DNA of 19,907 nucleotides from NCBI GenBank assembly GCA_018260755.1, contig JAGTWP010000022.1, forward strand, positions 1-19,907, given 5' to 3'. The stretch comes from Candidatus Altarchaeum sp. (lineage in GTDB: Archaea; Altiarchaeota; Altiarchaeia; Altiarchaeales; Altiarchaeaceae). Shown here in pieces: positions 1,774 to 19,907 of the stretch; position 1 is the stretch's first letter, and every line of letters begins with the position of its first letter. The notes beneath the pieces are model-generated. The model made no database searches and was not told the DNA's origin. It worked only from the letters and a program-made list of their open reading frames with translations. A program made the translations under genes and the position numbers.

Positions 1774-1786
1774 TAGGACTTACGCA
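1774..1786 (+). repeat. Left terminal inverted repeat of the IS remnant
   Basis: taggacttacgca; the mate at 2491-2503 differs at one position. The transposase stop codon (complement of 1780-1782) lies inside it. Confidence 0.65.
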
Positions 1787-2428
1787 AGACAAACACGAAC
1801 CTTTGGGTTTTTAAGTTCGTTTATCAGATAATTACGCAAAAGACCTTTTTTGAGTTGGTATATTGTCTTTTTAACTTTATATGGATAATCTTTCAAAGTA
1901 ACACAAACCGCCATACAACAGGCATTCTTTTTTGCATACCAACTATCCATCAATACATTTTTAAAAGGCAATTTCTTTTGAAAAGCTACACCCTTAAGCA
2001 TTTCTTCTACATGTTCTATCTTACTTTGTCCATCTCCATCAGGATCATAAATACGAAAATCTATTATCCAAAATTGCCCAGTATCTGGATTCACATAAAC
2101 ACAACTTATAACACCAATGCCCTTAATAACGCCGTGCTCGTTTCCAATCTATTGTCTTCTAACAAATTCTATTTTGTTTAATATCTTTTGCCCATAACAG
2201 AGTCATCAAATATAATACATCCATTTTCAGATACAACAATTTTGTTCTTTACATTCTCCCAAACGACTTTAGGCGTAATTTTTCCTTACCCAATTGCCTA
2301 TTTATCGCGTCGTGATTGATCCCTTCAACATGTTCAGCGAAATTCGTCAAGGTGTAATTTATTTGGCTGCTTAAAAGATATTGGCAATATTGTAGTATAA
2401 GATTTTGCCTTCCTATTTCACCTAACAT
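1780..2428 (-). pseudogene. DDE transposase, frameshifted, stop-interrupted and internally deleted
   Basis: Read from an ATG at 2428, the frame gives a DNA-binding-like N-terminus containing HVEGINHDAINRQLGKEK. A frameshift near 2284 leads to TPKVVWENVKNKIVV and IIFDDSVMGK. A second frameshift near 2180 leads to KIEFVRRQ, a TAG near 2152, then GNEHGVIKGIGVIS, NPDTGQFWIIDFRIYDPDGD and LPFKNVLMDSWYA. The DD catalytic blocks are recognisable, as in IS4/IS701-like DDE transposases. Right after DSWYA the protein jumps to a block like the family's last 45 residues (KTIYQLKKGLL...LKNPKVRVCLA). The region holding the catalytic Glu is therefore missing. It cannot encode an active enzyme. The exact IS family is uncertain. 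Confidence 0.85.
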
Positions 2429-5152: not shown

Positions 5153-7378
5153 ATGTATGTATGCCCAAAATGCGGGAAGGAATATAAAAAGAATGTGTTA
5201 AGAAAATGTGATTATTGCAAAAAGGTAATCGGATGCGATTATTGTTTAACTTCGGGGACATTAGAATACCGTTATTGTGATGACCACAATCCGAAGCCGA
5301 AAAAAAATAAAGGTGAAGAAATTTTGAAATTTATAAAAATTTTTAATGGTGATGTTGCTCCTGATGAACCATTATACAAACATGCTGTATTGCAATTAAC
5401 AAAAATTGCTAATGAGGAAGAAGGTGAAGGTCTGAATAAAATCATTAATATTTTTAAGGATAGCACAAAAGTGGATGTTTCAGAGGTCTTAATTGAGGGC
5501 CTGATTGATGTGTTTAAGAATGTTCGTAGTGATGAGATAATTGAACCTATTGCAGAATATATTGATAATTCCTACTTAAATGATGAATTTGTATACTTGC
5601 CCGAATGTATTGAATTGTTATTTAAAATTAAAACAAACAAGGCGGTTGAAAAAATCAGAGAACTTTCAGAGTATCCTTCCGTTGAGATAAGAAAACAAAT
5701 ATTAGATGTGCTTTCTGAAATTTCACAGGAGGGTGAAATAAACCTCGAATCGGAAATTTTAAAAATTTATGATGAAATTCTTGCCGGCAGGCCGGAGTAT
5801 GCTGTCGGGGAAATTTACGATTTGATTGCTCTTTTTACAGATATTGATTATCGTGTCAGGGATAATTCAGTTAGAGAATTGGCTGATAAGGACTCTAAAA
5901 AAGAACTGCTCGGCTTTCTTAATAGTTCAAATCCACAGATAATTGGATATACTATTAGAACATTGGCCTTAAAGAACGAGTTAAAAAACAATGATGAAAA
6001 AAACAATGATGGGAATATAAAAGAGGATGAAGAAATCAAAGAACACAATATTAATGAGAGTGAAGAAATCAAAGAACACAATATTAATGAGAGTGAAGAA
6101 ATCAAAGAACACAACATTAATGAGGATGAAGAAATCAAAGACCTTGATGTTGATAGTAAAGAACCAAAGGACATTAATGAGGATGAAGAAATCAAAGACC
6201 TTGATGTTGATAGTAAAGAACCAAAGGACATTAATGAGGATGAAGAAATCAAAGACCTTGATGTTGATAAAAAAATTTCCGAATATATAAAGCATGAAGA
6301 TGGGTTTGTAAGGGAAAATGTAGTATCGTATCTGAAAAGCAAAGGTATGTATGACAAAATTTTTGAGGCAATATCGGATGATTCAACAAATGTCCGAATT
6401 TCTGCATTAGATGCTTTACTTGAAGGAGGAGAGCATGCAAAGGAATATATTGATAAAATACAGGGAGGTGACAATGAATATGCAAAGAATTATATAACTA
6501 ATGAAGAGATGAGATATGCCGAAAATGTAAAAAGAGAGATTGACTTACATAGTAAATATGCAAAGGATTTTGCAAATTATAGTGAAGATGAAGAAGCAAT
6601 TGAGGAATACAAAGAAATTTTAAAAATAGACAAAAATAATGCTTATGCGTATTTAAATTTAGGGGAAATTTATTCTAAAATTTATCGCTACAAAGAGGCA
6701 GAAGAATATGCAAAGAAACACTTGGAAATAAGTAAGGATTCCGAAGGATGGAATTTGCTTGGAAGAATTTATAATAGCAAAGGTATGGAAAAAGAGGCGA
6801 TTGATGCGTTTAAGAAATCCCTTGCTATTGAAAACAATTTTTTATCTCATCGGTTTTTAGGAGAAATTGAGCAAAGGGCCAAAAATTTTGATGAAGCAAT
6901 TAAGGAATATAATGCTCTGTTGAAAATTAATGATATTGCATCTATTAGGTCAAGAATATCTGAAATTTTGCGCGAACAGGGCAAAAAAGAGGATGCAATG
7001 AATGAACTGCAAAAAGGAATTGACGCATTTCCTGATGAAATTGAATTTTATAAAGACCTTTCAATGATGCTGATGGATGTGCAAAAATTATCAGATGCGG
7101 AAAAATTACTTAGAACAGCGTACCGGAAATTTCCTTATGATGCCGAAACAGCAGGAATGTTGGCTTCTATATTATTTCAATTGCATAAATACAGCGAATC
7201 GGAATACCTCATTAGAAAGGTATTTGCTGAAAATCCAGATGTGGTAAAATCAGAGGAGCATGCAATACTTCATGAAATTTTGGGTATGAGTTTAGGCGAG
7301 CAGGGAAAGATGACCGAGGCAACAAAAGAATTAAAGACAGCGCGCCATCTTAATCCTTCATTAGGAAAAAGGCCCTAA
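5153..7378 (+). CDS. Zinc-finger / HEAT / TPR repeat protein with acidic tandem-repeat linker
   Basis: A 741-aa cytosolic scaffold-like protein. Residues 1-45 form a Cys/His module: C4, C7, C19, C22, C28, C31, C42 and H45 could bind two zinc ions. Residues about 50-280 and again about 370-440 look like helical HEAT-type repeats (for example SNPQIIGYTIRTLAL, DDSTNVRISALDALLEGG). Between them (291-372) is an acidic, Lys/Glu-rich tandem-repeat linker encoded by a minisatellite. From about 480 to the end there are six or seven TPR units, recognisable as YLNLGEIYSK, WNLLGRIYNSKGMEKEA and similar. There is no signal peptide or TM helix. Such proteins mediate protein-protein contacts; partner and process are unknown. 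It stands alone, 106 nt after aroK, with no Shine-Dalgarno sequence. Confidence 0.85.
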   Translation: MYVCPKCGKEYKKNVLRKCDYCKKVIGCDYCLTSGTLEYRYCDDHNPKPKKNKGEEILKFIKIFNGDVAPDEPLYKHAVLQLTKIANEEEGEGLNKIINIFKDSTKVDVSEVLIEGLIDVFKNVRSDEIIEPIAEYIDNSYLNDEFVYLPECIELLFKIKTNKAVEKIRELSEYPSVEIRKQILDVLSEISQEGEINLESEILKIYDEILAGRPEYAVGEIYDLIALFTDIDYRVRDNSVRELADKDSKKELLGFLNSSNPQIIGYTIRTLALKNELKNNDEKNNDGNIKEDEEIKEHNINESEEIKEHNINESEEIKEHNINEDEEIKDLDVDSKEPKDINEDEEIKDLDVDSKEPKDINEDEEIKDLDVDKKISEYIKHEDGFVRENVVSYLKSKGMYDKIFEAISDDSTNVRISALDALLEGGEHAKEYIDKIQGGDNEYAKNYITNEEMRYAENVKREIDLHSKYAKDFANYSEDEEAIEEYKEILKIDKNNAYAYLNLGEIYSKIYRYKEAEEYAKKHLEISKDSEGWNLLGRIYNSKGMEKEAIDAFKKSLAIENNFLSHRFLGEIEQRAKNFDEAIKEYNALLKINDIASIRSRISEILREQGKKEDAMNELQKGIDAFPDEIEFYKDLSMMLMDVQKLSDAEKLLRTAYRKFPYDAETAGMLASILFQLHKYSESEYLIRKVFAENPDVVKSEEHAILHEILGMSLGEQGKMTEATKELKTARHLNPSLGKRP
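6023..6268 (+). repeat. In-frame coding minisatellite (33-bp and 57-bp units)
   Basis: Three 33-bp units (6023, 6056, 6089) encode E(D/S)EEIKEHNIN. Two identical 57-bp units (6122, 6179) follow, encoding EDEEIKDLDVDSKEPKDIN, and then a partial third (6236-6268). All begin with the same GARRRTGAAGAAATCAAAGA block, so the 57-bp unit looks like an enlarged 33-bp unit. All lengths are multiples of three. Copies are almost identical at the DNA level, which points to recent slippage or recombination. Confidence 0.95.
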
Positions 7379-11984: not shown

Positions 11985-12000
11985 GTAACTATTCAGAGGG
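11985..12000 (+). repeat. Solitary MITE/IS-end motif
   Basis: gtaactattcagaggg is identical to the inner-facing right end of the MITE at 15260-15360 (read on the minus strand) and nearly identical to the motif at 19848. No inverted mate is present before the next gene, so this is a lone end or a decayed element. Confidence 0.65.
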
Positions 12001-15107: not shown

Positions 15108-15210
15108 TTTATTTATTCTAATTTACTAATTTATTTATTCATTTATTTAATTTATTTATTCTAATTTACTAATTTATTTATTCATTTATTTAATTTATTC
15201 ATTTATTTAA
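15108..15210 (+). repeat. 43-bp tandem repeat, G-free AT-rich tract
   Basis: Two identical, adjacent 43-bp copies (15108-15150 and 15151-15193), built of ttta/ttaa-like words, are followed by a third that keeps only the last 17 bp (15194-15210). From 15101 to about 15238 the plus strand has no G at all. There is no coding potential. The identity of the two copies suggests recent duplication. Confidence 0.9.
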
Positions 15211-15259
15211 TTAATTAATTTATTCATTTATTAAATATGTTTAAATACTAATTAAAAAC

Positions 15260-15360
15260 GTAACTATTCAGCCACCCAAAAAATTACGAGTAAATTTTTT
15301 GATTTTTTGGTATTTTTTGAAATTTTCGCAGGTAAATTTTTGTACCCTCTGAATAGTTAC
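15260..15360. mobile_element. 101-bp MITE with 12-bp inverted ends and 8-bp target duplication
   Basis: The ends gtaactattcag (15260-15271) and ctgaatagttac (15349-15360) are perfect inverted repeats. The flanks carry a perfect 8-bp direct repeat, ttaaaaac, at 15252-15259 and 15361-15368, as expected for a target-site duplication. The inside is AT-rich with a quasi-palindrome near 15277-15301 and no ORF. Ends starting GTAA with 8-bp duplications are known for IS66-type elements, so a parent of that kind is a reasonable guess. Related ends are at 11985 and 19848. It sits directly in front of the promoter of the small gene at 15398. Confidence 0.88.
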
Positions 15361-15369
15361 TTAAAAACC

Positions 15370-17964: not shown

Positions 17965-18753
17965 ATGGAAAAAAATATCTATTTAACACATTATGAGCAA
18001 CATGTATTTAACTTGCTGTTCAAGAAAAGTGGAAATATAATATCTCTTGAAAGTATCAGGTGTTTGTTCCCGGAACTTACAGTAGGAAAAATTAACAAAA
18101 TTTGCTCGGGGCTTTCAAAAAAAGGATACCTTCATAGAATAAAAAAAGAAATTTACCTGATACAGAGTGATCCCTCACAAAAGCCACTGATATCAGATCC
18201 CTCTAAAATTGCGCTGCAAATCTATCCAGGATATTTGGCATTTCATTCCGCTCTCAGGATTTACGATTTAACCGAATACGAACCATTTACTATATTTATT
18301 GCAACAGCGGGGAAATCACATACTATAAAAATAGGAGAGTATATTTTCAAATACATCTCTGTAAAAAACACCGAAGGTGTGGAGTTCTATAAAAATGTTT
18401 ATGTTTCCTCAAAAACAAAGACATTCTACGACTGCTTTTCCAAACCACAGTACTGTGGAGGATACTCTGTAATTGCAAAGGCATTATATTTGAATAAAGG
18501 ATGTGATTGGAATAAATTAAAGGCGTATTTTGAAAATTTTGCATCCGATACATTATGTCAGCGAAGCGGATATGTTATTGAACTTATAAAAAAAGCAAAT
18601 ATTGTGGAAATCCCGGATTTTATTATATCCTATTTCAAATCAAGAATAAAGACGACCGCACGATTAATTCCTCAAAATAAATCAGGGGGAAAATACATTA
18701 AGGAATGGCATATCCTTGACAATCTCGGAGGGGAAAACATAGTTTCAATATAA
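17965..18753 (+). CDS. abiEi: AbiEi-like antitoxin, winged-helix regulator
   Basis: A 262-aa protein that fits the AbiEi-type antitoxin of type IV toxin-antitoxin systems. Such proteins repress their own operon and counter the toxin without binding it. Residues 1-65 form a winged helix (LTHYEQHVFNLLFKK, SLESIRCLFPELTVGKINKI, GLSKKGYLHRIKKEIYLI). The rest is the AbiEi C-terminal type region, seen in GYLAFHSALRIYDLTEY, FKYISVKN and SKTKTFYDCFSKPQYCGG. The product is longer than the shortest bacterial antitoxins and similar to the larger AbiEi_4/transcriptional-regulator relatives. The toxin gene follows after 13 nt. The ATG is preceded by cataag with no ribosome-binding site. Autoregulation is expected but no inverted-repeat operator is obvious in the gap upstream. 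Confidence 0.75.
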   Translation: MEKNIYLTHYEQHVFNLLFKKSGNIISLESIRCLFPELTVGKINKICSGLSKKGYLHRIKKEIYLIQSDPSQKPLISDPSKIALQIYPGYLAFHSALRIYDLTEYEPFTIFIATAGKSHTIKIGEYIFKYISVKNTEGVEFYKNVYVSSKTKTFYDCFSKPQYCGGYSVIAKALYLNKGCDWNKLKAYFENFASDTLCQRSGYVIELIKKANIVEIPDFIISYFKSRIKTTARLIPQNKSGGKYIKEWHILDNLGGENIVSI

Positions 18754-18766
18754 ACCAATATCTAAA

Positions 18767-19564
18767 ATGGATATAGACATCTTACGGCTGATCGCCTTAA
18801 AATCAGGCCTCGGAATAAAATATGTATCCAAGAATGAGCGACTAAACACTTTGCTCGGACAGATTGATAAGATTTTTGGTGACTCTGTGATATTAAAAGG
18901 AGGCACGGCATTAAGCAAGGCATATCTTCAAACAAAGGGTGTTGACAGATTTTCGGATGACATAGACCTTGACTTTATACCTTCTGAGGGCATGAATTTA
19001 AATGAAAAAATAAATTTTATCAGGGAAAAAATCAAAGAAATCAACGGATTTGAAATTTCAATGCCCCGGCTTTTGCACAGAACCATGCGATTTGATACCA
19101 CTTATGTGAACGAGATTAACGAAAAAGACACCATAAGGATTGAATTTTATCTGAGCCATAATACACCATTATGCTGCAAACCTCCTCAAAAGCAGATGCT
19201 TGTATCTTCGTTTATGTCTGTAAATCCCGTAATGTTCCTCACCTATTCTTTTGAGGATTTATTCTCAAGAAAATTCGTTGCGTTATACTCCCGCACAGAA
19301 GGCAAGGATATTTATGATGTGTACCACTGCACAATGCTTGAATATGACCACGAAAAATTTAAGGGAGCGTTAGACCTAATGCTGAAGTTTTATAAGATTG
19401 AGAAAGAGACCTTCTTTATAAACTTGGTTGAAAAACTGAAAAAAGCTAACGAAAATTACAGATACATCCAAAATTCAACTAACCACTATGTTCCCACCCG
19501 TATGAGACCTGACTGGAGAATTATAATTAAAGAACTGCTTGTGTATATGAAAAAACACACTTAA
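18767..19564 (+). CDS. abiEii: AbiEii-like nucleotidyltransferase toxin
   Basis: A 265-aa nucleotidyltransferase of the AbiEii/DUF1814 (MenT) group, the toxin half of type IV AbiE systems. Known members act with NTPs, and some modify tRNA ends to stop growth. The catalytic signature is complete: VILKGGTALSKAYL (41-54) with the GG(S/T) loop, RFSDDIDLDF (61-70) with the metal-binding Asp pair, and KDIYDVYH with its conserved KDxxD pattern about residue 181. No frameshift or stop is present, so it should be active. It forms an operon with the antitoxin upstream (13-nt gap). Converging tiny genes lie 25 nt past its stop. Related domain proteins occur without toxicity, so activity remains inference. 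Confidence 0.85.
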   Translation: MDIDILRLIALKSGLGIKYVSKNERLNTLLGQIDKIFGDSVILKGGTALSKAYLQTKGVDRFSDDIDLDFIPSEGMNLNEKINFIREKIKEINGFEISMPRLLHRTMRFDTTYVNEINEKDTIRIEFYLSHNTPLCCKPPQKQMLVSSFMSVNPVMFLTYSFEDLFSRKFVALYSRTEGKDIYDVYHCTMLEYDHEKFKGALDLMLKFYKIEKETFFINLVEKLKKANENYRYIQNSTNHYVPTRMRPDWRIIIKELLVYMKKHT

Positions 19565-19847: not shown

Positions 19848-19907
19848 GTAACTATTCGGAGGGTATTTTCAAAATGAAATTTTGAAATACTGAAATCTTT
19901 TGATTTC
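19848..19907 (+). repeat. Third MITE/IS-end motif, running off the window edge
   Basis: gtaactattcggagggta matches the MITE right end (as read on the minus strand) with one change. It is followed at once by a hairpin with a 12-bp stem and one bulged base (19863-19890). The rest of the element, if any, lies outside the window. Confidence 0.55.

What the first reader, a model, noticed from the sequence alone, without database searches (positions are those of the whole stretch)
15252..15368. A clean, apparently young 101-bp MITE with an 8-bp target duplication
Perfect 12-bp inverted ends and a perfect 8-bp flanking direct repeat are seen directly. The size and lack of ORF make it a miniature inverted-repeat element. 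GTAA ends with 8-bp duplications suggest an IS66-type parent. It may be an undescribed archaeal MITE family.
Basis: partly seen in the sequence, partly recalled or inferred. Interest (0 to 1): 0.62.

Follow-up and report, generated by a model that had tools for sequence, protein, structure and literature searches.

The report
IS66-derived mini-transposon family in Altiarchaeum

Summary
Window 15260-15360 is a 101-bp element with perfect 12-bp inverted ends (GTAACTATTCAG) and a perfect 8-bp duplication, TTAAAAAC. Its genome (an 85%-complete Altiarchaeum MAG) holds eight 101-bp copies, one other identical to it, plus 89-374 bp relatives. Of 40 facing end pairs, 21 carry a perfect 8-bp direct repeat (20 different sequences) against 0 of 440 control comparisons. 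Two insertions, one in each of two species, have one-copy empty sites in the other; the window's own site has a weaker one. A 1,725-bp element with the same ends in a sister species encodes a broken IS66-family transposase (single-ORF ISBst12 type), and two 361-bp copies in the own genome are internal deletions of such an element. No IS66 transposase was found in the own MAG and no intact parent was seen. Unexpected: larger members contain, and all four Altiarchaeum genomes also scatter elsewhere, a two-hairpin unit (TAC-TGAAA..TTTCA-ATCTT-hairpin-AATAC) whose stems differ between copies yet stay paired. That repeat is the more novel lead.

The parts
15252..15259 (.). left 8-bp target-site duplication TTAAAAAC
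   Evidence: one of 21 perfect 8-bp repeats around family members
15260..15360 (-). 101-bp MITE; strand given as that of the parental transposase (its CAGAGG end, next to the transposase start, lies at 15360)
15260..15271 (+). terminal inverted repeat GTAACTATTCAG; with the next 6 bp identical to 18 bp of the parent's transposase-3' end
15349..15360 (-). terminal inverted repeat, the same 12 bp inverted; with the next 3 bp identical to 15 bp of the parent's transposase-5' end
15361..15368 (.). right 8-bp target-site duplication TTAAAAAC
11985..11996 (+). unpaired family end GTAACTATTCAG followed by AGGGAACGAAGTGAGTGTAAAA, a family-type interior; the other end is not recognisable (relic)
19848..19907 (+). 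start of another family member (GTAACTATTCGG, one mismatch) running into a hairpin-unit array and cut by the contig end

Best explanation
The feature is a non-autonomous mini-transposon (MITE) of an IS66-family parent of the single-ORF ISBst12 type. A transposase made elsewhere bound the two ends (GTAACTATTCAG-AGG and GTAACTATTCAG-CCACCC) and joined them to an AT-rich intergenic target with an 8-bp stagger; gap filling left TTAAAAAC on both sides. Shown: ends, 8-bp duplication, multiple copies at different AT-rich sites, one-copy empty sites, and an element with the same ends and an IS66 DDE domain. Inferred: mobilisation in trans by that type of transposase, and the staggered joining. The parent copy seen is disrupted and no IS66 transposase is found in the own MAG, so present-day activity is not shown. 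Some relatives (361 bp) are internal deletions of the parent. The 101-bp form keeps only 15 and 18 parental bases at its ends, with an unrelated AT-rich interior. Longer members (158-374 bp) carry extra hairpin units.
For: Ends and TSD. Copies in the own genome: eight full 101-bp copies, and 120 end matches against 8 control. TSD statistics: 21 of 40 facing pairs with perfect 8-bp repeats, 0 of 440 controls, 20 distinct sequences, 96% AT against 68% background. Empty sites: C13:9067-9440 against G003:C113 (89.5% over 296 bp, single target); G003:C113:22740-22840 against G000:C13; window site against G001:C48. Parent: G001:C134:3594-5318, 1,725 bp, perfect ends, PF03050 E=8e-26, NF033517 (IS66) E=1e-34. 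Deletion derivatives: C4:1435-1795 and C8:5733-6093 match both parental ends at 82-84%. Genus-wide: the 101-bp query matches all four genus genomes; outside the genus there is one weak match, G026 at E=1e-4. An active ISBst12-group element, ISDge4, has ends GTGACTACTCAGCA/GTAACTGCTCAGCA and an 8-bp duplication (PMC12898284).
Against: No IS66 DDE domain in the own MAG (85% complete). The G001 parent has internal stops and frame changes, and its own flanks (CTTTATTT / TAAAAATT) are not a duplication. The 101-bp interior is not parental. The window's own empty site is aligned on the left over only about 32 bp of AT-rich DNA.
Confidence: 0.93

Rival explanations
1. A stationary intergenic structure (terminator, regulatory hairpin or small RNA) that only looks like a transposon.
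For: The terminal stem folds (-25.3 kcal/mol for 101 nt) and most copies are intergenic.
Against: Exact 8-bp duplications of different sequence and one-copy empty sites in a congener; no Rfam match at this site.
Confidence: 0.02
2. A MITE moved by a transposase of a different family that also makes 8-bp duplications.
For: No IS66 transposase in the own MAG. The 101-bp interior is not parental.
Against: A full-length element with identical ends encodes an IS66 DDE protein, the 361-bp copies link both, and ISBst12-group ends have the same motif.
Confidence: 0.04
3. A repeat family that spread by homologous recombination or gene conversion rather than by transposition.
For: No intact transposase seen; 19 of 40 facing pairs lack a perfect duplication.
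Against: Identical copies with different intact duplications and species-specific presence/absence with one-copy empty sites.
Confidence: 0.01

Closest known systems
IS66 family, ISBst12 group (e.g. ISDge4 of Deinococcus geothermalis)
   Same: GTAA-type ends with the GTAACT..TCAGC motif, 8-bp duplication, single IS66-type transposase gene in the parent
   Different: The element itself has no gene; the host is an uncultivated archaeon; the only parent copy seen is broken and without a duplication
Archaeal MITEs (Sulfolobus, Haloquadratum and others)
   Same: Short, non-coding, multicopy, ends shared with an IS
   Different: Host lineage: neither Altiarchaeota nor IS66 occurs in the 2024 review of prokaryotic MITEs (PMC10969869)
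Modular bacterial repeats: pneumococcal BOX, Porphyromonas BrickBuilt
   Same: A MITE whose interior grows by repeat modules (BrickBuilt: PMC4596501; BOX modularity from general knowledge)
   Different: Here the modules are paired hairpins with fixed connectors and interchangeable stems, and more than half lie away from listed MITE ends
IS200/IS605-related palindromic elements (REP, PATE), considered for the hairpin units only
   Same: Small hairpin units, constant TAC before the unit, some units in loops; comparison from general knowledge
   Different: No Y1 transposase domain in any of four Altiarchaeum genomes

Membership tests
MITE | short, non-coding, with terminal inverted repeats | tested here: met
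   101 bp, 12-bp perfect ends, no ORF
MITE | target-site duplication of fixed length | tested here: met
   21 of 40 pairs with perfect 8 bp; no perfect repeats of length 5-7; 0 of 440 controls
MITE | multicopy, with insertion polymorphism or empty sites | tested here: met
MITE | ends shared with an autonomous element | tested here: met
   15 and 18 bp identical to the ends of G001:C134:3594-5318; that copy is broken, so autonomy is inferred
MITE | mobilised in trans | not testable with these tools
   needs a transposition assay
IS66 family (parent) | DDE_Tnp_IS66 transposase inside the element | tested here: met
   PF03050 8e-26, above cut-off; NF033517 1.1e-34 on a fragment, 120 bits against the full-length cut-off of 180
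IS66 family (parent) | GTAA ends | tested here: met
IS66 family (parent) | 8-bp duplication around the full-length copy | tested here: not met
   flanks CTTTATTT / TAAAAATT in the only copy; the feature is met by the MITEs
ISBst12 group | single transposase ORF, no tnpA/tnpB | tested here: met
   1,725 bp filled by one broken IS66-type gene
ISBst12 group | intact transposase | tested here: not met
   stops and frame changes in the G001 copy; an intact relative with other ends exists in G012
IS200/IS605 (considered for the hairpin units) | Y1 HUH transposase in the host | tested here: not met
   PF01797 absent from four incomplete genomes

The most novel reading that the evidence does not exclude
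The MITE family is one carrier of a separate repeat system of Altiarchaeum for which no description was found: two-hairpin units (TAC-TGAAA..TTTCA-ATCTT-hairpin-AATAC) with constant connectors and freely varying but paired stems. They stack in tandem, sit in each other's loops and in the interiors of MITEs, and so may spread by a single-strand or hairpin-guided mechanism that is not IS66 and whose enzyme is not recognised.
Probability: 0.3. Interest if true: 0.68.

Novelty: new member of a known kind. Interest (0 to 1): 0.45.

Why it matters
It gives Altiarchaeum, an uncultivated and ecologically important subsurface archaeon, a well-documented mobile-repeat family with a named parent type. 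It helps explain why its assemblies break (many contigs end inside these elements) and points to ISBst12-type transposition in an archaeal lineage. The hairpin units inside the larger members are a testable case of a structured repeat whose stems change while pairing is kept, which would bear on how palindromic repeats arise and move.

Tried and rejected
Chance inverted repeat: rejected. RNA family: no Rfam match except a tRNA elsewhere. Viral carriers: the two IMG/VR hits with the 18-bp end lie inside a GC-rich coding gene and are unrelated. IS66 transposase in the own MAG: none. G012's intact IS66 as direct parent: its ends are GTAACTACCAACCC, so it is a cousin. IS200/IS605 transposase for the hairpin units: none in four genomes. 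No paper describing these repeats was found; most subscription papers are not in that library.

Full report
Observation. The element is exactly as described: TTAAAAAC (15252-15259), a 101-bp element (15260-15360) with perfect 12-bp inverted ends GTAACTATTCAG, and TTAAAAAC again (15361-15368). In the whole window it is the only place where a perfect 8-12 bp inverted repeat within 400 bp is bounded by a perfect 8-bp direct repeat.

Family in the own genome. The window is contig 55 of a 78-contig, 85%-complete genome, G000. The 101-bp sequence has eight full-length copies there including this one, one of them identical to it (C27:13921-14021), and dozens of partial matches. The 12-bp end occurs 120 times at <=1 mismatch against 8 for the reversed pattern. 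Pairing the ends gives elements of 89, 101, 115, 132, 156, 158, 199, 243-245, 252, 287-288, 361 and 374 bp. Of 40 facing pairs in the 344 kb sampled, 21 have a perfect direct repeat of exactly 8 bp; none has a perfect repeat of 5, 6 or 7 bp, and 0 of 440 offset controls match at 8 of 8. The 21 duplications are 20 different sequences, 96% A+T against 68% background, so the family is found in AT-rich targets. In most cases no long reading frame crosses the rejoined site.

Empty sites. For the 374-bp copy at C13:9067-9440, the rejoined flanks align with the sister species G003 over 296 bp at 89.5%, with a single copy of the target. In the same region G003 carries its own 101-bp copy (C113:22740-22840) whose site is empty and single-copy in G000, next to a further indel (which is why the mechanical two-copy score is slightly higher there, 667 against 651). 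For the window's copy, G001 has the orthologous 76-aa gene, about 32 bp of recognisable sequence on the left side and no element; the one-copy join scores slightly better than the two-copy join (261 against 252), so this site is consistent but weaker.

Parent. The 361-bp copies (C4, C8) contain both ends of a broken reading frame. Searching the genus with one of them led to a 1,725-bp element in G001 (C134:3594-5318; the contig corresponds to MTER01000134, Candidatus Altiarchaeales archaeon A3) with perfect GTAACTATTCAG ends. It contains an IS66-type transposase gene interrupted by stops and frame changes: PF03050 8e-26, NF033517 IS66 1e-34, and an N-terminal part matching DUF6444. The 361-bp copies match its first 154 and last 138 bp at 82-84%, so they are internal deletions. 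The 101-bp element shares 15 and 18 terminal bases with it and nothing inside. A 101-bp copy lies 283 bp from this parent on the same contig. The single-gene layout is that of the ISBst12 group; the active ISBst12-group element ISDge4 has ends GTGACTACTCAGCA/GTAACTGCTCAGCA and an 8-bp duplication (PMC12898284), close to GTAACTATTCAGCC. An intact IS66 protein in another family of the class (G012, about 50% identical) has ends GTAACTACCAACCC.

Distribution. All four genomes of the genus carry the family; among 27 other genomes searched only one weak match appeared, in G026 of the same class (E=1e-4). The host is therefore Altiarchaeum, by the names of its congeners' records. The two IMG/VR hits are chance matches within a coding gene.

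Mechanism. Shown by sequence: inverted ends, fixed 8-bp duplication, AT-rich targets, one-copy empty sites, a parent-type element with a DDE transposase. Inferred: an ISBst12-type transposase acted in trans on the ends. Not shown: that any active transposase exists today. The own MAG has no IS66 domain, and the G001 parent is broken and lacks a duplication. Many contigs end inside these elements, so an intact repeated copy could have been lost in assembly.

Unexpected structure. Aligning the size classes shows that the interiors differ by whole modules: 158 differs from 101 by a 57-bp segment between TTTAC and CTGCG, and 199 and 244 by segments that each consist of a hairpin plus ACACGAACGAAGTGAGCGT. 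The 57-bp segment is a two-hairpin unit, TGAAA..TTTCA-ATCTT-hairpin-AATAC. The pattern TGAAAN{6,18}TTTCAATCTT occurs 96 times in G000 and 40, 212 and 209 times in G001-G003, twice in G026 and not in G012, against 0-2 for the reversed control. Fifty-four distinct first hairpins extend the five pattern-imposed pairs by 2.85 further pairs on average, against 0.71 for shuffled interiors (maximum 1.20 in 2,000 trials), with CG, AT, TA and TG replacing one another at the same stem positions. At 55 of 93 places in G000 no listed family end lies within 330 bp, and tandem arrays with a period of about 53 bp exist (C53:16727-17068). In several places a whole unit sits in the loop of another hairpin, e.g. 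L207 and L215. I looked for an IS200/IS605 Y1 transposase as the agent and found none in four genomes. Slippage and template switching at hairpins is the plain alternative. This is a separate finding and I do not claim a mechanism for it.

Verdict. A new MITE family of a known kind, with a well-supported IS66/ISBst12 parent type. The modular hairpin units are the part worth following.

Noticed in passing
G000 genome-wide, e.g. L207 (C53:16300-17500), L208, L209, L215; window 19848-19907: Two-hairpin repeat units with constant connectors (TAC-TGAAA..TTTCA-ATCTT-hairpin-AATAC) and interchangeable, still paired stems; tandem arrays of about 53-bp period, units inside loops of other units; 40-212 pattern matches per Altiarchaeum genome.
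   Followed up: partly
G000, inside the 199-288 bp elements; L211, L216: A constant ACACGAACGAAGTGAGCGT segment follows hairpins of different stem sequence, also outside the MITEs.
   Followed up: no
window 1780-2094 (-): Remnant of an IS701/IS4-type transposase, 104 aa, NF049921 E=1.2e-20, below its curated cut-off.
   Followed up: partly
window 17965-19564: AbiEii-type nucleotidyltransferase toxin gene (PF08843, 9.6e-23) directly behind a 262-aa ORF without a Pfam match, the place where an AbiEi-type antitoxin would be expected.
   Followed up: no
window 15116-15235: Very AT-rich run of repeated TTTATTTA-type words immediately left of the insertion.
   Followed up: no
window 5981-6295: In-frame direct repeats (EDEEIKDLDVDSKEPKDIN and EEIKEHNIN) inside a 741-aa predicted protein.
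   Followed up: no
many G000 contig ends (C3, C12, C16, C43, C47, C54, C58, C63, C65, C66, C78): Contigs end within about 50-200 bp inside family members, so the repeats fragment the assembly and could hide an intact parent.
   Followed up: partly
L155 (G012:C1:564500-570000): Intact 509-aa IS66 transposase between ends GTAACTACCAACCC in another family of the class, without a visible duplication.
   Followed up: partly
G000 C58:12180-12280 and C32:4419-4705: Rejoining the flanks leaves a stop-free frame of 301 and 268 aa across the site, so these two copies may interrupt or abut genes.
   Followed up: no
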